Of a DNA stretch of 63,583 bases, positions 56,231 to 63,583 are shown piece after piece. The notes beneath the pieces are model-generated. The model was not told the DNA's origin. It saw nothing but the letters and a program-made list of their open reading frames with translations, and ran no database searches. Made by a program: the position numbers and the translations under genes. The DNA comes from Flavobacteriales bacterium (GTDB taxonomy: Bacteria; Bacteroidota; Bacteroidia; Flavobacteriales_D; Crocinitomicaceae): assembly GCA_015665275.1 (NCBI GenBank), contig JADFAL010000038.1, forward strand, positions 1-63,583, read 5' to 3'. The stretch's first letter is position 1; the number at the start of each line of letters is the position of its first letter.

Positions 56231-57211
56231 ATGAAAAGAACATTACTTTTTTTAGGAACTGTCTTCATGGGCGTATCTGCTTCTGCTCAAGATTGTTCTG
56301 ATCTATTTATCTCCGAGTACGTAGAGGGGGTAAGTAACAACAAAGCACTAGAAATTTATAACCCAACAGATCAACCTATTGATTTGTCGCAGTACTTCGT
56401 TGCTCGATACAGCAATGGTTCGACTTCGCACACATCGGCTCAAACAGCTTCTATTGCCGTTGAGTTGGTAGGTACCTTGGCACCGTATTCAACGCATGTT
56501 GCTGTAATCGATAAACGTGATTCTACCGGAACTGGGCAAGAGGCACCAGTATGGGATGAGTTGCAAGCAGTTGCTGACGAATTCTACAGCCCTGTTTACG
56601 ATCAGTCATATGCATTCTACTTTAACGGTAACGATGCATTGATTCTTTACAAAGGAAACATTAGCGATATCGGTAACCAGCAAGTTATTGATGTATTCGG
56701 AAAAGTGGGTGAGAATCCAGGTCCTGATTCAGGATGGTCTACAGGCTTCCCGTACAATGATGGTTCAGGAGTTATTGTTTCACAAGATCATTCATTGATC
56801 CGTAAGGCATCAATAATGACAGGACAAATCAATCCTTTCCCTTCTTTCTTTGATCCATTATTAGAGTGGGATTCAATTCCAGCATTGATCGAAGTACAAG
56901 GAAACACAACAGGAAACTGGGCATCTTTAGGATCACATTCTTGTGATTGTGCTCAAGGAAGCGTTAACGAAATTGCAAACGTTGTCAATGTAACTGTTGC
57001 TCCGAACCCATCAAACGGTTCATTCACTGTAGGTAACATCATCAGTTTTACAAACGTTCAGGTGATCAATTCATTGGGACAAGAAGTGTACGCTGTTAAG
57101 AACAACGGACAGACTTCTCTTACAATTGATCTTTCAGAGCGACGTGGAGTATACTTCGTGAAGCTTTCAGGTGAAGGTGATGCGGTAACGCGTCGTGTTA
57201 TTATCAAATAA
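56231..57211 (+). CDS. T9SS-secreted lamin-tail-domain protein, 326 residues
   Basis: Extracellular protein: signal peptide (1-19, ends SASA), then a lamin tail domain (about 22-210; CSDLFISEYVEGVSNNKALE, IYNPTDQPIDLSQYFVARYS) and a T9SS sorting domain in the last 75 residues (VAPNPSNGSFTVGN, SLGQEVYAVKNNG, RGVYFVKLSGEGDAVTRR). Bacterial LTD domains often come with extracellular nucleases and are thought to help bind nucleic acid or anchor the protein, without catalysis of their own. Here it precedes a TonB receptor and a T9SS nuclease, which fits that role. A terminator hairpin follows directly. Confidence 0.88.
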   Translation: MKRTLLFLGTVFMGVSASAQDCSDLFISEYVEGVSNNKALEIYNPTDQPIDLSQYFVARYSNGSTSHTSAQTASIAVELVGTLAPYSTHVAVIDKRDSTGTGQEAPVWDELQAVADEFYSPVYDQSYAFYFNGNDALILYKGNISDIGNQQVIDVFGKVGENPGPDSGWSTGFPYNDGSGVIVSQDHSLIRKASIMTGQINPFPSFFDPLLEWDSIPALIEVQGNTTGNWASLGSHSCDCAQGSVNEIANVVNVTVAPNPSNGSFTVGNIISFTNVQVINSLGQEVYAVKNNGQTSLTIDLSERRGVYFVKLSGEGDAVTRRVIIK

Positions 57212-57223
57212 GATTTTATTCAT

Positions 57224-57253
57224 GGTCCTTGACTTCGGTTGAGGACCTTTTTT
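57224..57253 (+). terminator. Strong terminator with cUUCGg loop
   Basis: Ten-base stem (57224-57233 with 57238-57247, two G-T pairs) closed by an extra-stable UUCG tetraloop and followed by six T. It separates the lamin-tail gene from the TonB receptor, although the next ATG is only 12 bases further on. Confidence 0.9.
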
Positions 57254-57264
57254 ATTCATAGGCA

Positions 57265-60117
57265 ATGAAAGCAATTCTAGTTGTTCTTGCTTCGTTTCTT
57301 GCGATGGCTTCTTATGCCCAAAAAGGAACGTTGAGTGGAACTATCACTGATAACGTATCAAAGCAACCTGTTGTAGGAGCAAAAATTGTGTTCTCTTCCG
57401 AATTTCGTGCAATTACCGATTACGATGGAAATTACAGCATCAAGGATATTCCATACGGGTCGTACGAAGGAACTATTACAATGCTTGGTTTTGATACTCT
57501 AGCTATTTCAGTTAATATCGATCAGCCCCAAGTTTCCAACGATATCATTTTAGGCGGAAGTCAGGAGTTGGATGAGGTACGAGTAATTGGAAACATTGCA
57601 GAGGATCGTAAAACACCCGTAGCGAAAACAACGTTAGATGCCAAAGCTATTCGCGAGGAACTCGGTTCGCAAGATTTGCCCATGATTTTAAACTCTACAC
57701 CAGGGGTTCACGCTACTGAGCAAGGAGGTGGTGATGGAGATGCACGTATTACTATTCGTGGATTCAACCAGCGAAACGTTGGGGTGATGATAGATGGAGT
57801 ACCTGTGAACGACATGGAGAACGGATGGGTATACTGGTCGAACTGGTTCGGTTTGGACAATATTACATCTCAAATTCAGGTACAACGTGGATTGGGCGCT
57901 ACGAAATTGGCCATGCCATCTGTTGGAGGTACCATGAATATCCTTACGAAGAATACAGGAGGTAAAAGAGAAATTACCGCACGTCAAGAATACGGTACAG
58001 GAAACTTCTTGAGAACTTCTGTTTCTTACAAATCCGGAACATTGAAAAATGGATGGGGAGTATTGTTCTCTGGTTCATACAAACAAGGCGACGGTTGGGT
58101 AAACGGATTGAGCACACAAGGTGGATTCTATTACCTAAAAGTCCAAAAGAAATTAGATAAGCACGTCATCTCATTGAGTGGGTTTGGTGCGCCTCAACAG
58201 CACGGTCAGCGTGCTTTCCAACAAGGAATTTCGTACTGGGATAAAGAGTACGGTAGAAACATGTTCGAAGGAAGCGATGAATTGTACAACATTATCACGC
58301 GCTACCGAACGGATGGAGATTACAATGCCTATACTCAAGGATTGCAGTCGCAAGGATTGAATGCCTTTTCGGTACAACAGTACATGACGAATTATGTCGA
58401 TACCACAGGGGCTGAAAACCGAGGAGTTCGATACAATGAGCATTACGGATACAGAACAATTAATGGTGAGCGCCAACTATTCAATGAGCGCCGCAACTAT
58501 TACCATAAGCCACAAATTACCTTGAAGGATTTCTGGAAAGTCAATGACAAATTGTCGATCTCCAATATGGTGTATACTTCCATCGGTCGTGGTGGCGGAC
58601 AACGCTATTTCAATTCCAGTTCCACCATCATCGCAGATGAAGATGGTTTGGTTGATTGGGATCAGATCGTTCAGAACAATCAGTATACAACTTTCGGAGG
58701 TCAGCAGCTTCCAACGATTGATCCTTTTTACGATCCTACAATGTTGAAGTCGTCTCAAATTTTGTCTGCTTCGGTAAACAATCATTTTTGGTTGGGAGGC
58801 TTGTCTCAGTTCGATTATGATCATACGCCATACCTTTCATTTGCTGGAGGATTGGATTACCGCTACTACAAAGGACAGCATTATAACGAAGTATTGGACC
58901 TTTTAGGAGGAGAGTACTTTGTGAATACGCAGGATCAGAATGCTGCATCTGACATGAAGCAGGTTGGGGATAAAATTGGTCGTCAGCCATGGCACAACAA
59001 TCGTGATGGATTGGTTCAGTGGGCGGGAGCATTCGGTCAAATGGAATACTCGAAAGGAGCTTGGACTGCCTTTGTAAATGCATCAGTTGTTGCGAACTTC
59101 TATAAAGGAATTGATTACTTCCGTGGTAGACAGATGGTTTTGTCTGATACAATTTTAGAGATCGGATATGACGATGTAATTACCCATAACGGAGCAACGT
59201 ACGATCGCAATTCCCAAGGGCTTCGTGATCACCAAACGGATTGGGTAAATAAAACAGGATTTACCTTTAAAACAGGAGCCAATTACAACGTTACGGAGAA
59301 GCAAAATGTTTTTGTAAATGTTGGGTACTTGTCTAGAACACCAATGTTTAACAATGTAATCGATAACCAGAACAACCGCGTTTTTGATACGCTTGTAAAT
59401 GAAAACATTCTAGCCTTCGAATTCGGATATGGCTTCCGTTCAAAGAAAGTGAGCTTGAATGTGAATGGTTACTTTACGAATTGGACCAACCGTCCACTGC
59501 CATTTGGGTTGTCTGTTCAAGACCCTCTGGATCCTTTGGAAGTGATTATTGTGAACATTCCGGGGATGGATGCACGTCACATGGGGATTGAAGTTGATGG
59601 AGTTTACCGTATTAATAAGAAAATCACGCTTGAAGGAATGGCAAGTATCGGAGACTGGATTTGGAATTCAGCAGAAGATATTGTGGTATACAACGACACG
59701 ATTACATTTGATGCGCGTGGTGTACATGTGGGGGACGCTGCTCAATCGACGTATGCAGCATCAATTCGATGGGCACCGATCAAAGGAGGGTATTTGAAAT
59801 TGAAATACACGTATTTTGATCGTTACTACACAGATTTCGATCCAATTTCATTGACAGGTGCAACCGCTGGTCGTGATTCATGGCAAATGCCAGATTACGG
59901 ATTGATGAGTTTGCATGCAGGGTATCGATTACCATTGAAAGAAACAACACTGAGCTTCCGCGCGAATGTCATCAACTTGTTGAATACAACCTACATTCTT
60001 GATGGGACAAATAATAGAAACTTTGATGAAGCGGAGGATAATTTCAATGCACAGTCAGCATCGGTATTCTTTGGACAAGGAATTCGTTTCAACGTTTCCG
60101 TTGGATTTGAATTTTAA
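57265..60117 (+). CDS. TonB-dependent outer-membrane receptor with carboxypeptidase-like domain
   Basis: Active transporter of 950 residues. A signal peptide (1-18) precedes a carboxypeptidase-regulatory-like domain (about 20-105; LSGTITDNVSKQPVVGAKIV, DYDGNYSIKDIPYGSYEGTI), a TonB box-like stretch DEVRVIG near 107, then the plug (LPMILNSTPGVHATEQGGGD, IRGFNQRNVGVMIDGVPVND near 165-200) and a 22-strand barrel ending NVSVGFEF. No SusD partner lies next to it, so it is not a classical Sus pair. Substrate is inferred from its neighbours (nuclease, nucleotidase): nucleotides, nucleosides or phosphate are possible. It is 27 bases from the nuclease gene and probably co-transcribed. Confidence 0.92.
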   Translation: MKAILVVLASFLAMASYAQKGTLSGTITDNVSKQPVVGAKIVFSSEFRAITDYDGNYSIKDIPYGSYEGTITMLGFDTLAISVNIDQPQVSNDIILGGSQELDEVRVIGNIAEDRKTPVAKTTLDAKAIREELGSQDLPMILNSTPGVHATEQGGGDGDARITIRGFNQRNVGVMIDGVPVNDMENGWVYWSNWFGLDNITSQIQVQRGLGATKLAMPSVGGTMNILTKNTGGKREITARQEYGTGNFLRTSVSYKSGTLKNGWGVLFSGSYKQGDGWVNGLSTQGGFYYLKVQKKLDKHVISLSGFGAPQQHGQRAFQQGISYWDKEYGRNMFEGSDELYNIITRYRTDGDYNAYTQGLQSQGLNAFSVQQYMTNYVDTTGAENRGVRYNEHYGYRTINGERQLFNERRNYYHKPQITLKDFWKVNDKLSISNMVYTSIGRGGGQRYFNSSSTIIADEDGLVDWDQIVQNNQYTTFGGQQLPTIDPFYDPTMLKSSQILSASVNNHFWLGGLSQFDYDHTPYLSFAGGLDYRYYKGQHYNEVLDLLGGEYFVNTQDQNAASDMKQVGDKIGRQPWHNNRDGLVQWAGAFGQMEYSKGAWTAFVNASVVANFYKGIDYFRGRQMVLSDTILEIGYDDVITHNGATYDRNSQGLRDHQTDWVNKTGFTFKTGANYNVTEKQNVFVNVGYLSRTPMFNNVIDNQNNRVFDTLVNENILAFEFGYGFRSKKVSLNVNGYFTNWTNRPLPFGLSVQDPLDPLEVIIVNIPGMDARHMGIEVDGVYRINKKITLEGMASIGDWIWNSAEDIVVYNDTITFDARGVHVGDAAQSTYAASIRWAPIKGGYLKLKYTYFDRYYTDFDPISLTGATAGRDSWQMPDYGLMSLHAGYRLPLKETTLSFRANVINLLNTTYILDGTNNRNFDEAEDNFNAQSASVFFGQGIRFNVSVGFEF

Positions 60118-60144
60118 ATTAGAATTAGCAACAAACATAACAGT

Positions 60145-62415
60145 ATGAGAAAAATAGGATTAATCATTGCAGTGCTTACAGGAAGCTTCTTTTCGTTTGC
60201 ACAGCTGAACATTGCCGATGCGCGTACCTTCGGTATCGGTTCTACAGTGACGATTTCTGGAATCGCAACCAACGGCGGGGAATTAGGGCCTATCCGATAC
60301 GTACAAGATGCTACGGCAGGATTGGCGTGTTATGGAGGACCAATGACAGGTGTAAATGAAGGTGATTCAATCACTGTAACTGGACCGCTTATTGAATTTT
60401 CAGGATTGTTGGAGATTTCAATTGTACAGAGTGTTACCGTGCACAATCAAGCAGTGGTTCCACCAACGCCTTTGAATATTCCAATTACTTCTGCCGCAGA
60501 ATCATTGGAGTCGCAGTTGGTTGAGATTGAAAATGTAACATTCGTTCAATCTGGAAACTTTTCAGGAAACACGACTTATCAGATTACAGATGGTACCAAT
60601 CAATTGGATGTGCGTGTAAATAGCGGAACGAACTTGGTTGGGACAGCAATTCCTGGAGGGCCGATAACCATTACTGGACCACTTGGACAGTTCAACGCAA
60701 ACTATCAGATTGTACCACGTTCTACGAATGATGTCGTAACGTACGTGGCGCCATTGTATGAAATCAACGTTTTGTTGGATGGATCAACTGTGCTACACAC
60801 ATCTGATTATTTCATTGGAAGTTCATCTTCTGTATCCGTAGAAATCGAAAACTACGGAACACAAGATTTGATCGTTTCTGGAGCAACGTTTACAGGTCCA
60901 GATGCAGGAGACTTCAACTCAAACATTGGAGCACCTACTATTGCTGGAGGAAGTTCTCAAACATTTACAATTAACTACGCGCCTTCAAATACGGGTTCAC
61001 ACTTTGCAACATTAGAGATCGCATCAAACGACGCAGACGAGAATCCTTACATTATCAATTTTGAAGGGGTAGGAACAGATAACTTGGCAACTGAGCCAAC
61101 ATCAAATCCGACAGGGTTGACATTCCCTACTGTAGAAGCATACACAGTGAATGGAACCTATGCTGCAGGAACTGGAGCAACGAACTATTTAGTATTGTGG
61201 AAGACAGGAAGTGCAATTACCGGAGTCCCAATGGACGGAAACACATATTTACGTGGTGATGTTGTTGGAGACGCAAAAGTTGCCTATGCAGGACCGGGAA
61301 CTACATTCACACCTCGCGGTGTAATCGCGAATCAGGATTATCACTTTGCAGTGTATGCATTTAACGGCCAATCGGGTTATGAAAACTACCAAGCGACTTC
61401 ACCAGCTACAGGAAACGTAACAAGCGGCGGGTCAAACATTGGAAGTTACTACGGAAGCATCACAGCAGCTTCTTCTTCATTGCATACCGACTTACAAGCA
61501 TTGATCAATCCGCATACAGAAGTATCATACTTCTTGTACAAGTTGACGTTGATGGATCAGTTCGAGGTTCGTGACACAACTGGAGGGCAGTCCTTCGTTG
61601 AATGTGCGTACACAGGAGAACGTTACGTATTTGATGATCCATTTGATTGGACTGCGACAGGGTACAGCCGTGAGCATACGTTTGCACATTCATGGATGCC
61701 AACATTCCCAGCAGATCAGCCAGAAGAGCCAGAGTACAACGATCAACACAACTTGTACCCGGCAAACTTGGCTGAAGCAAACTCGCCTCGTAGTAACCTA
61801 CCTTTGGGAGAGATTGACGGAAACGTTGTAGATTCATACTTGGAAGGAGCCACTGGGTTTAGTGGAAGTCAATTGGTATATGAGCCGAGAGACAGTCAGA
61901 AAGGAAACGCAGCACGTGCGATTTTCTATATGGTAACTTGTTATGGGTTCCCATTGACAGGAAATTTGAATGCAGACGAACAAGATCAAGATTTATTGAA
62001 ATCGTGGCACTTTAATGATGTGCCTGACAACTACGAAATTGCACGTCACGAGTTTATTTACAACCAACAAGGTAACCGTAACCCGTATATTGATTCAATT
62101 GCATGGGCTTGTTTCGTTGATTTTGATGCATTTGGATATGATGCGACGAACTGTAACTTGAGCATTGAAGATCAGGTTCAGAACAGCATGGTTGTGTATC
62201 CAGTACCAGCGACTGAGAACGTATATGTTCAGGTGAACGGAACGAAAATTACGAGCTACGAAGTGATCGACATGCAAGGACGTGTTGTTGCTTCTACTAA
62301 GGATGCAAACGAAGATGTCGTTATTTTCAACTCCAATGAATTTGAATCCGGAAGCTACATTGTAAAAGTTGTAACACCATTTGGTGAGGCACAACGCAAA
62401 ATGATCATTGAATAA
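60145..62415 (+). CDS. T9SS-secreted endonuclease I-family nuclease, multidomain
   Basis: Protein of 756 residues. After a signal peptide (1-20) come two OB-like modules (about 20-200; DUF5689-like; VTISGIATNGGELGPIRYVQ), an Ig/HYDIN-type choice-of-anchor D module (about 210-320; IVSGATFTGPDAGDFNSNIG), a fibronectin-like module (about 325-425), and the endonuclease I domain (about 440-670) with YSREHTFAHSWMP (R509-E510-H511) and NDQHNLYPANLAEANSPRSN near 535. The last 75 residues are a T9SS tail (YPVPATENVYVQVNG, IDMQGRVVASTKD). It should degrade external DNA or RNA without strict sequence preference. Its stop shares one base with the next start (TAATG). Confidence 0.9.
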   Translation: MRKIGLIIAVLTGSFFSFAQLNIADARTFGIGSTVTISGIATNGGELGPIRYVQDATAGLACYGGPMTGVNEGDSITVTGPLIEFSGLLEISIVQSVTVHNQAVVPPTPLNIPITSAAESLESQLVEIENVTFVQSGNFSGNTTYQITDGTNQLDVRVNSGTNLVGTAIPGGPITITGPLGQFNANYQIVPRSTNDVVTYVAPLYEINVLLDGSTVLHTSDYFIGSSSSVSVEIENYGTQDLIVSGATFTGPDAGDFNSNIGAPTIAGGSSQTFTINYAPSNTGSHFATLEIASNDADENPYIINFEGVGTDNLATEPTSNPTGLTFPTVEAYTVNGTYAAGTGATNYLVLWKTGSAITGVPMDGNTYLRGDVVGDAKVAYAGPGTTFTPRGVIANQDYHFAVYAFNGQSGYENYQATSPATGNVTSGGSNIGSYYGSITAASSSLHTDLQALINPHTEVSYFLYKLTLMDQFEVRDTTGGQSFVECAYTGERYVFDDPFDWTATGYSREHTFAHSWMPTFPADQPEEPEYNDQHNLYPANLAEANSPRSNLPLGEIDGNVVDSYLEGATGFSGSQLVYEPRDSQKGNAARAIFYMVTCYGFPLTGNLNADEQDQDLLKSWHFNDVPDNYEIARHEFIYNQQGNRNPYIDSIAWACFVDFDAFGYDATNCNLSIEDQVQNSMVVYPVPATENVYVQVNGTKITSYEVIDMQGRVVASTKDANEDVVIFNSNEFESGSYIVKVVTPFGEAQRKMIIE

Positions 62416-63134
62416 TGATTCGGAATTTTGTCTTTATATTAATACTTGGAGCAGGCCTATGGGCCTGCTCTGATGTTTATACACTCTCTGCCGAGGACAA
62501 AACCACTTTAGTTGATAGCGGAATTGAGTCCAATGCATCGATAGATTCTATCATTGCTCCATATCAGAATGAGTTGTCACAGACGATGGATGAGGTGATT
62601 GCATACGCCCCCGAAGATTTTACCAAAGGAAGGCCCAACGGGACATTGAATGATTGGGCGGCCGATGCTATATTATACCACGAACTACGCGTCTCAACAG
62701 ACGTCCAATTTTCAGGGCCTGTGATATGTCTATTGAATGTGGGAGGACTTCGGAATCCTATTAGTAAAGGTGATGTAACCGTTGGTGATATTTACAAATT
62801 AATGCCGTTCGACAACGAAATTGTTTGGGTGGAAATGCCATTGGATTCGCAAGAGGATATTATCAAGTACTTGCAGGCCTCAGGCGGGGAGCCCTTATCT
62901 GGTGCCGTTTTATCGAAGGATAAATTCATTTTTGAAAATGCTAAAGAATTTTACAATTCCTTTTGGGTCATTACTTCGGATTACCTAATGAACGGAGGTG
63001 ATAAAATGGATTTCTTTGAAAAGAAGATTCGAATGAAATACGGAAGTGGTTTGATGCGCGATGCTATGTTGAACGAAGCGAAATTTCAAGACACATTGAA
63101 TGTTACTGATGGTGATAGAATCATTTTAGAATGA
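62415..63134 (+). CDS. 5'-nucleotidase C-terminal-domain lipoprotein (split enzyme)
   Basis: Exported lipoprotein of 239 residues: short signal with lipobox near residue 18 (LGAGLWACS). The mature part is only the 5'-nucleotidase C-terminal (substrate-binding) domain: RPNGTLNDWAADAI near 75, CLLNVGGLRNPISKGDVTVG near 108 (normally NGGGIR), and FWVITSDYLMNGGDKM near 188. No metallophosphatase N-terminal domain precedes it; that domain is encoded by the next gene, starting at 63131 and overlapping by four bases (ATGA). The pair thus looks like a 5'-nucleotidase cut in two, with domain order reversed on the DNA. Function in the absence of the partner is unclear. Confidence 0.85.
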   Translation: MIRNFVFILILGAGLWACSDVYTLSAEDKTTLVDSGIESNASIDSIIAPYQNELSQTMDEVIAYAPEDFTKGRPNGTLNDWAADAILYHELRVSTDVQFSGPVICLLNVGGLRNPISKGDVTVGDIYKLMPFDNEIVWVEMPLDSQEDIIKYLQASGGEPLSGAVLSKDKFIFENAKEFYNSFWVITSDYLMNGGDKMDFFEKKIRMKYGSGLMRDAMLNEAKFQDTLNVTDGDRIILE

Positions 63135-63583
63135 ACAGAAGAGACTTTTTACGTAATACCGCATTAATTTCTGGAGGAACCATGATGGCTCCTTCACTAT
63201 TTGCTAAAGATGTATTGGAGTCGAGCGCATCCAAAGGAGATAAAATTACCATTCTTCATACCAACGATACGCATTCCAATATTGATCCTTTTCCTGAGAA
63301 CCACGCGAAGTATCCGGGACAAGGTGGAGTTTCACGTCGTTTCGAAATGATTCAAAAGATTCGTTCCGAAGAAGAAAATGTTTTGCTACTCGATGCCGGT
63401 GATATCTTCCAGGGAACCCCGTATTTCAACATGTTCGGCGGAGTGCTCGAGATGAAGTTGATGTCGAAGCTTGGTTACGATGCTGCCACGATGGGGAATC
63501 ACGATTTCGACGGTGGAATGGATGGATTCAAGAGTGCGAAGGAATATGCAGACTTCCCCTTTTTATGTTCGAATTACGACTTC
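63131..63583 (+). CDS. Tat-exported 5'-nucleotidase metallophosphatase domain (partial)
   Basis: Cut by the window end after 151 residues. It starts at 63131, overlapping the previous gene's stop (ATGA). The first 25 residues are a Tat signal (NRRDFLRNTALISGG, then a hydrophobic part ending APSLFAK). The metallophosphatase motifs follow: ILHTNDTHSNIDPF near 38 (Asp and His metal ligands), VLLLDAGDIFQGTPYF near 90 (metal-bridging Asp) and GYDAATMGNHDFDGGM near 117 (Asn, His). This is the catalytic half of UshA/5'-nucleotidase, hydrolysing nucleotides to nucleosides and phosphate. Whether its own C-terminal domain follows cannot be seen. Confidence 0.9.
   Translation, partial: MNRRDFLRNTALISGGTMMAPSLFAKDVLESSASKGDKITILHTNDTHSNIDPFPENHAKYPGQGGVSRRFEMIQKIRSEEENVLLLDAGDIFQGTPYFNMFGGVLEMKLMSKLGYDAATMGNHDFDGGMDGFKSAKEYADFPFLCSNYDF

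What the first reader, a model, noticed from the sequence alone, without database searches (positions are those of the whole stretch)
62415..63583. 5'-nucleotidase split into two overlapping genes with different export routes
Seen in sequence: gene 62415-63134 encodes only the substrate-binding C-terminal domain with a lipobox (Sec/lipoprotein route), and the next gene starts with an RR-type Tat signal and holds the metallophosphatase domain, overlapping by four bases. Established: in UshA the two domains are one chain and both contribute to the active site. Inference: the two halves may meet outside the cytoplasm, one tethered by lipid and the other delivered folded and metal-loaded. The conserved NGGG of the C-domain reads NVGG here.
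Basis: partly seen in the sequence, partly recalled or inferred. Interest (0 to 1): 0.6.

Follow-up and report, generated by a model that had tools for sequence, protein, structure and literature searches.

The report
Textbook phosphatase split into two genes
An enzyme that strips phosphate from nucleotides, one chain in E. coli and humans, is here encoded as two neighbouring genes, a lipid-anchored binding half and a separately exported catalytic half, and the same pair recurs in many other Bacteroidota.

Summary
Confirmed. Window 62415-63134 encodes a lipoprotein holding only the 5'-nucleotidase C-terminal (substrate-binding) domain. The next gene overlaps it by four bases and starts with a Tat-type signal and a metallophosphatase domain. 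The contig stops at the window end; the gene evidently continues on another contig of the same genome and ends without a C-domain (about 305 aa). The pair is not peculiar to this genome: it adjoins in the 30 same-genus loci read, and in a 296-genome Bacteroidota sample all 70 other genomes with the stand-alone metallophosphatase (E up to 1e-60) carry the stand-alone C-domain just upstream. Order is C-domain then metallophosphatase, the reverse of the 24 fused genes read. In both domain trees the split form is one side of a branch, so one old origin is likely. Both halves keep most UshA active-site residues, and AlphaFold2 places them together confidently (pTM 0.84, as one read-through chain, no control). 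Best reading: a two-subunit periplasmic 5'-nucleotidase, here behind a secreted endonuclease gene, suggesting DNA or nucleotide scavenging. Weak points: no activity data; some pairs look Sec/Sec rather than Sec/Tat; NVGG is ordinary. My paper searches listed no account of the split.

The parts
62415..63134 (+). Lipoprotein holding only the 5'-nucleotidase C-terminal (substrate-binding) domain, 239 aa
   Evidence: PF02872 53.9 bits; AF2 model pLDDT 91.7, whose VIA-align rows are 5'-nucleotidase-family and SoxB C-domains from Z 22.1 to 11.2, then a drop to 2.3
62457..62468 (+). Lipobox L-W-A-C, lipidated Cys18 expected
   Evidence: sequence; lipobox-like Cys in 94 of 100 split C-domain proteins
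62736..62747 (+). NVGG motif (UshA GGG region), ordinary N-x-G-G of the family
62805..62816 (+). PFDN: Phe and Asn equivalent to UshA F429 and N431 (roles recalled)
   Evidence: F 85 and Y 4 of 89; N 89 of 89
62994..63002 (+). GGD motif (UshA D504 region)
   Evidence: D in 78 of 89
63131..63134 (+). ATGA overlap of stop and start codons
   Evidence: 24 of 30 same-genus pairs, own included, overlap by 1 or 4 bases
63131..63583 (+). Metallophosphatase (catalytic) half with Tat-like signal; cut by the contig end, evidently continues at G000:C27:3-473
   Evidence: PF00149
63134..63151 (+). Tat-like motif NRRDFL
   Evidence: sequence; TatC present in this genome
63266..63274 (+). D-x-H metal motif (UshA D41, H43; roles recalled)
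   Evidence: 88 of 89, a gap in the other row
63497..63511 (+). NHxxD: metal ligand and catalytic dyad (UshA N116, H117, D120; roles recalled)
   Evidence: 88 of 89, a gap in the other row
60145..62415 (+). Upstream T9SS-type endonuclease I gene; its stop shares one base with the C-domain start
   Evidence: PF04231, Por_Secre_tail; a homologue lies upstream of the pair in 29 of 30 same-genus loci, own included

Best explanation
The two genes encode the two subunits of one periplasmic 5'-nucleotidase of the UshA/CD73 family. The C-domain subunit is exported by Sec, lipidated and held at a membrane facing the periplasm. It binds the nucleoside part of the substrate between two aromatic residues. 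The metallophosphatase subunit is exported (with a Tat-type signal here and in most relatives read) and carries the dimetal site and catalytic His-Asp. The two dock like the two domains of UshA, and the covalent hinge is replaced by a protein-protein interface. Product: nucleoside plus phosphate. In this genus the genes follow a secreted endonuclease gene, so the enzyme probably finishes the digestion of DNA or nucleotides taken from outside. Shown: gene anatomy, conservation, residues, co-occurrence. Predicted: folds and mutual arrangement. Inferred: physical complex, location, substrate, role in scavenging.
For: Adjacent in 30 of 30 same-genus loci read, and C half just upstream in 70 of 70 other sampled Bacteroidota genomes with the stand-alone catalytic half at E up to 1e-60, while other neighbours differ by lineage in the loci looked at (DHDPS, DnaA, GH3, PorZ, mutase). 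One-base or four-base overlaps suggest translational coupling. The genome has one PF02872 match. Most active-site residues kept in both halves. Predicted folds: catalytic half of L117 Z 31, window C half Z 22 to 5'-nucleotidases. Read-through model of the L117 pair pTM 0.84, which by rough arithmetic needs a predicted inter-domain error of about 3-5 A, against about 0.55 for free domains. Mirror-tree r 0.75, n 66, highest of 500 permutations 0.21. In E. coli CpdB the N domain alone loses most activity on 3'-AMP and dinucleotides and the C domain alone is inactive (PMC7922932, abstract and passages).
Against: No experiment. The model was a tethered single chain of a relative (L117), without a control pair, and no coordinates or PAE could be read. 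CpdB's N domain alone still works on 2',3'-cyclic nucleotides and bis-4-NPP, so a catalytic half might act alone on some substrates. Not all recalled UshA binding residues are kept: R375 aligns with R in 31 of 89 split rows and R379 with a gap in 89 of 89, though the 23 fused Bacteroidota rows are alike (R in 7; gap in 17). The C half is less conserved (mean column identity 33% over 44 rows against 54% over 26, different row sets). In 9 of the 70 pairs outside the genus the genes lie more than 100 bases apart, up to 614; I did not check what lies between. Mirror-tree agreement is expected from plain co-inheritance.
Confidence: 0.77

Rival explanations
1. Two independent proteins: the metallophosphatase is a self-sufficient phosphatase or cyclic phosphodiesterase, and the C-domain lipoprotein is a separate nucleotide-binding or sensing protein.
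For: CpdB N domain alone keeps activity on 2',3'-cyclic nucleotides and bis-4-NPP (PMC7922932, abstract and passages); the C half is less conserved; solved chains of about 340 residues with only this domain exist, such as YfkN 3gve.
Against: In the 296-genome sample no stand-alone catalytic half at E up to 1e-60 was found without the C half (70 of 70); C halves keep the aromatic pair, R410 and N431; confident arrangement in the read-through model.
Confidence: 0.17
2. Assembly or sequencing artefact: a normal fused 5'-nucleotidase gene broken by a frameshift or misjoin.
For: The window gene is cut by a contig end, and one locus (L064/L074, G105) does look like a fused-order gene in two frames.
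Against: Order is reversed (C before metallophosphatase) against 24 of 24 fused genes read; each half has its own signal; the pattern recurs in 100 of 101 loci and in an annotated Bacteroides record.
Confidence: 0.01
3. The pair makes a complex but with another main substrate (for example UDP-sugars, NAD or cyclic nucleotides), not 5'-nucleotides of DNA. This overlaps with the best explanation: same complex, other substrate, so the odds do not add to 1.
For: Family members vary in substrate (recalled); the NadN C-domain model also matches, just above its cut-off; the best NCBIfam matches are all far below their cut-offs and include multifunctional enzymes.
Against: Catalytic halves of relatives L011 and L117 are closest to 5'-nucleotidases (2z1a, venom enzyme, CD73); the neighbour is an endonuclease in this genus (29 of 30), though in only 1 of 71 loci elsewhere.
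Confidence: 0.25

Closest known systems
E. coli UshA (5'-nucleotidase/UDP-sugar hydrolase), human CD73, Thermus 2z1a
   Same: Both domains present by fold and by most catalytic and binding residues
   Different: One chain, metallophosphatase first, one signal peptide; here two chains, reversed order, two signals. UshA R379 has no counterpart
Fused Bacteroidota 5'-nucleotidases (24 of the 30 loci L040-L069)
   Same: Same phylum, same domains; L061 and L065 are nearest to the split clade in the catalytic tree (SH-aLRT 89)
   Different: 24 of 24 have metallophosphatase then C-domain in one frame
E. coli CpdB dissected into N and C domains (PMC7922932, abstract and passages)
   Same: Artificial version of the same split; shows division of labour
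   Different: Laboratory construct; no mixing experiment in the passages shown
SoxB thiosulfohydrolase
   Same: Family relative; Tat export of it is recalled
   Different: Single chain, sulfur substrate (recalled)
Bacteroides finegoldii plasmid record NZ_OY725905.1, '5'-nucleotidase' plus 'metallophosphatase'
   Same: Same two genes, same order, 26 bases apart
   Different: Catalytic half has a Sec-like start by eye; annotated as two proteins without comment in the gene table seen

Membership tests
UshA/CD73-type 5'-nucleotidase | Metallophosphatase domain with dimetal ligands and His-Asp dyad | tested here: met
   PF00149; equivalents of the recalled UshA ligands in 85-89 of 89 rows, position 254 being H instead of Q in 86, as in 23 of 23 fused rows. 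The window holds only the first half of the gene; the rest was read on contig C27 but not included in the residue count
UshA/CD73-type 5'-nucleotidase | C-terminal substrate-binding domain with aromatic pair, Arg and Asn | tested here: met
   PF02872; R410 86, F or Y at 429 89, N431 89, Y, W or F at 498 89 of 89, but R375 31 and R379 0 of 89; fold Z 22
UshA/CD73-type 5'-nucleotidase | Both domains in one chain, metallophosphatase first | tested here: not met
   Two genes, reversed order, no C-domain in the catalytic gene. So it is not an UshA-type chain; it is filed as a split variant that works like one
UshA/CD73-type 5'-nucleotidase | 5'-nucleotidase activity with hinge-bending domain motion | not testable with these tools
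   needs enzymology and structures
Tat substrate | RR motif with hydrophobic stretch, and Tat machinery in the genome | tested here: met
   NRRDFL start, TatC; RRx[FL] 77 and RKx[FL] 18 of 100 pairs
Tat substrate | Export that depends on Tat | not testable with these tools
   needs a tatC mutant
Bacterial lipoprotein | Signal peptide ending in a lipobox Cys | tested here: met
   LWAC at residues 15-18; lipobox-like in 94 of 100

The most novel reading that the evidence does not exclude
An obligate two-subunit hydrolase whose halves cross the membrane by different machines (substrate-binding half unfolded by Sec and lipid-anchored, catalytic half folded by Tat with its metals) and meet only in the periplasm. 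UshA's hinge rotation would be replaced by a reversible subunit interface, so turnover could be controlled by assembly. The arrangement would have arisen once, by a domain-order-reversing fission, and been kept in many Bacteroidota lineages.
Probability: 0.4. Interest if true: 0.68.

Novelty: new variant of a known kind. Interest (0 to 1): 0.55.

Why it matters
UshA and CD73 are model enzymes for domain rotation in catalysis (recalled); a natural two-chain form would test whether the covalent hinge is needed. It also gives a case of one active site assembled from Sec-exported and Tat-exported parts. It would correct the annotation of a gene pair found in 71 of 296 sampled Bacteroidota genomes, the window's own included, a group that one study puts potentially among the most important in extracellular DNA turnover in marine sediments (PMC8289736, passages only).

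Tried and rejected
Artefact reading rejected by recurrence and reversed order. NVGG as an anomaly rejected. Loss of Tat as the reason for Sec-like catalytic halves in G288 and G296 rejected: both have TatC. The endonuclease neighbour as a general partner rejected: 29 of 30 same-genus loci (not L018) but 1 of 71 other loci, the one being L137 of the same family; only about 1.5-2.3 kb of upstream flank was searched, less where a contig ended. Other lineages have other neighbours in the 19 loci looked at, of which some neighbour genes were named by Pfam.

Led nowhere: fold comparison of the read-through model aligned essentially the catalytic half only, as these aligners follow chain order, so the docking geometry could not be compared with open or closed UshA. 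A search of another phylum failed once and was not pursued; the plasmid collection gave 253 records, 20 listed, all under 60% identity, which I did not check for fusion except the best, the Bacteroides pair. Paper searches that ran listed no title or abstract start about a split 5'-nucleotidase; one search found no paper at all; the library lacks most subscription papers. Papers seen: PMC7922932 abstract and passages; PMC8475336, PMC9958556 and PMC8289736 passages only; the others in listings only.

Rows dropped and limits: 3 of 33 other same-genus genomes (G002, G003, G006; 79-83% complete) gave no C-half match; G010 gave one but was handed no locus. The 60 short-frame loci are the ones under 400 aa in the listed part, which was cut. 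L074 (G105) had no C hit by the model, so 59 of 60. The residue counts use 89 split pairs, without L074 and without the 11 pairs read later, and 23 of 24 fused rows (L069 left out as too long). From the catalytic tree the truncated or disturbed rows L010, L025, L029, L031 and L038 were dropped; in both trees same-genus rows were thinned to one in three. The trees are quick IQ-TREE runs without bootstrap. The regex for lipoboxes missed L082, L123 and L128, which look normal by eye, and L111, L120 and L134, which have none or an unsure start. The Tat regex does not test for Sec-type signals, so L091 was counted among the RK rows; the five others are L027, L038, L073, L115 and L135.
Full report
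1. The observation. Window 62415-63134 encodes a 239-residue protein with a signal ending LWAC and one domain, PF02872, the 5'-nucleotidase C-terminal domain. The next gene starts at 63131, sharing ATGA with the stop of the first, and begins MNRRDFLRNTALISGG followed by a calcineurin-like metallophosphatase domain. The window is a whole contig, so this gene is cut at 63583. A profile of 26 relatives finds its missing part in the same genome: the window piece covers model positions 1-147 and G000:C27:3-455 covers 146-296. Contig C27 starts with the same 8 bases that end the window, and the frame stops at base 473 without a C-domain. The protein would be about 305 residues, as in complete relatives (300-308 in the same genus). 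The genome has a single PF02872 match.

2. How widespread. Of 60 genomes searched with the C half, own included, 47 match. Of the 33 other same-genus genomes 30 match; G002, G003 and G006 do not. In the 30 same-genus loci read, own included, a catalytic half lies directly downstream; 24 overlap by 1 or 4 bases, 5 have gaps of 1-4 bases, and one (L038) has a disturbed start. In a sample of 296 Bacteroidota genomes of at least 90% completeness, 155 have a PF02872 match, and the listed open frames fall mostly into about 240-300 and 500 or more (the list was cut). I fetched the 60 listed matches with frames under 400: 59 have a stand-alone metallophosphatase downstream. Searching the same sample with the catalytic profile at E up to 1e-60 gave 72 genomes from 39 of 140 genera, of which one is the window's and one (G178) is a fused protein. 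Of the other 70, 59 were already seen and the remaining 11 all have the C half just upstream. So 70 of 70 have the pair, in the order C-domain then metallophosphatase; 61 of the 70 lie within 100 bases, the rest within 614. Weaker catalytic halves and C halves in the unlisted part were not examined. Fused genes in the same phylum have the other order in 24 of 24.

3. History. In a tree of catalytic domains (92 rows, 68 split) the split form is one side of a branch with SH-aLRT 96; in the tree of C-domains (94 rows, 70 split) with 85. The nearest fused rows in the catalytic tree are L061 and L065 (89). One origin is likely. Because the order is reversed, a simple break of a fused gene cannot explain it. 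A tandem duplication with loss of the outer domains could, but this is inference.

4. Residues. Roles of UshA residues are recalled; their letters were checked on the E. coli gene. In 89 split catalytic halves the equivalents of D41, H43, D84, N116, H117 and D120 are kept in 88 or 89, H217 in 86 and H252 in 85 (one N), the rest gaps; position 254 is His instead of Gln in 86, as in the 23 fused Bacteroidota rows compared. In 89 split C halves R410 is kept in 86, F429 as F or Y in 89, N431 in 89, F498 as Y, W or F in 89, and D504 in 78. Against this, R375 aligns with R in only 31 and R379 with a gap in all 89; the fused Bacteroidota rows are similar (R in 7 and gap in 17 of 23).

5. Structure. 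The window's C half is predicted with pLDDT 91.7; its strong matches among the PDB chains aligned are C-domains of 5'-nucleotidases, NadN and SoxB (Z 22.1 down to 11.2, next row 2.3). A relative's pair lying in one frame (L117) was modelled as one read-through chain: pLDDT 89.1, pTM 0.84, with residues 259-280 between the halves under pLDDT 50. By rough arithmetic, free domains would give about 0.55, and 0.84 needs an inter-domain error of about 3-5 A. No control pair was run. In that model residues 24-35 of the C half form a strand, while residues 17-40 of the window's C half alone are coil; the proteins differ, so this is only a hint. Fold comparison matched the catalytic half to 5'-nucleotidases (Z 31).

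6. Export. C halves: lipobox-like Cys in 94 of 100. Catalytic halves: RRx[FL] in 77 and RKx[FL] in 18 of 100; 4 look like Tat lipoproteins. TatC is present in the window's genome and in 24 of 24 others searched. Exceptions: L115 (G288) and a Bacteroides finegoldii pair have Sec-like catalytic halves, and L091 (G296) looks so by eye, although G288 and G296 have TatC. So a Tat-type signal is common but not required by the arrangement.

7. Context. In this genus a T9SS-type endonuclease I gene precedes the pair (29 of 30 loci). In the window a TonB-type receptor and a lamin-tail-domain protein come before it, and genes with like sequence starts do so in L006-L008. Elsewhere the neighbours differ in the loci looked at (endonuclease in 1 of 71), and the catalytic half is the constant partner. 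Together with a report that Bacteroidota degrade extracellular DNA and encode nucleases and periplasmic nucleotidases (PMC8289736, passages), this suggests nucleotide dephosphorylation after DNA breakdown. This step is inference.

8. Mechanism. In E. coli CpdB, removing the C domain cuts kcat on 3'-AMP and dinucleotides 30- to 44000-fold, while 2',3'-cyclic nucleotides and bis-4-NPP lose only 1.4- to 3-fold, and the C domain alone is inactive (PMC7922932, abstract and passages). The split pair is the natural counterpart. The likeliest reading is a two-subunit enzyme. That each half acts alone remains possible and needs enzymology.

9. Novelty. The parts are known, and a public record holds the pair under separate names. 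My paper searches listed nothing describing the split. I rate it a new variant of a known kind.

Noticed in passing
56231-62415, and upstream of the pair in L006-L008: T9SS-type endonuclease I gene whose stop overlaps the C-domain start, with a TonB-type receptor and a lamin-tail-domain secreted protein before it; looks like a DNA-foraging operon.
   Followed up: partly
L064/L074 (G105): A fused-order 5'-nucleotidase that appears in two frames (metallophosphatase 208 aa, then C-domain 378 aa); frameshift or recent break, unlike the conserved split.
   Followed up: no
L038 (G029:C42): Catalytic half whose signal region and first residues are out of frame; sequencing error or decay not distinguished.
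   Followed up: no
L076, L099, L116, L126: Catalytic halves with a Cys after the Tat-like signal, possible Tat lipoproteins, so both halves may be lipid-anchored there.
   Followed up: partly
L143 564-1313 and L006 7741-8484: A gene of about 250 codons follows the pair in this genome and in L006; the L006 copy is weakly DUF3575-like (below cut-off), function unknown.
   Followed up: partly
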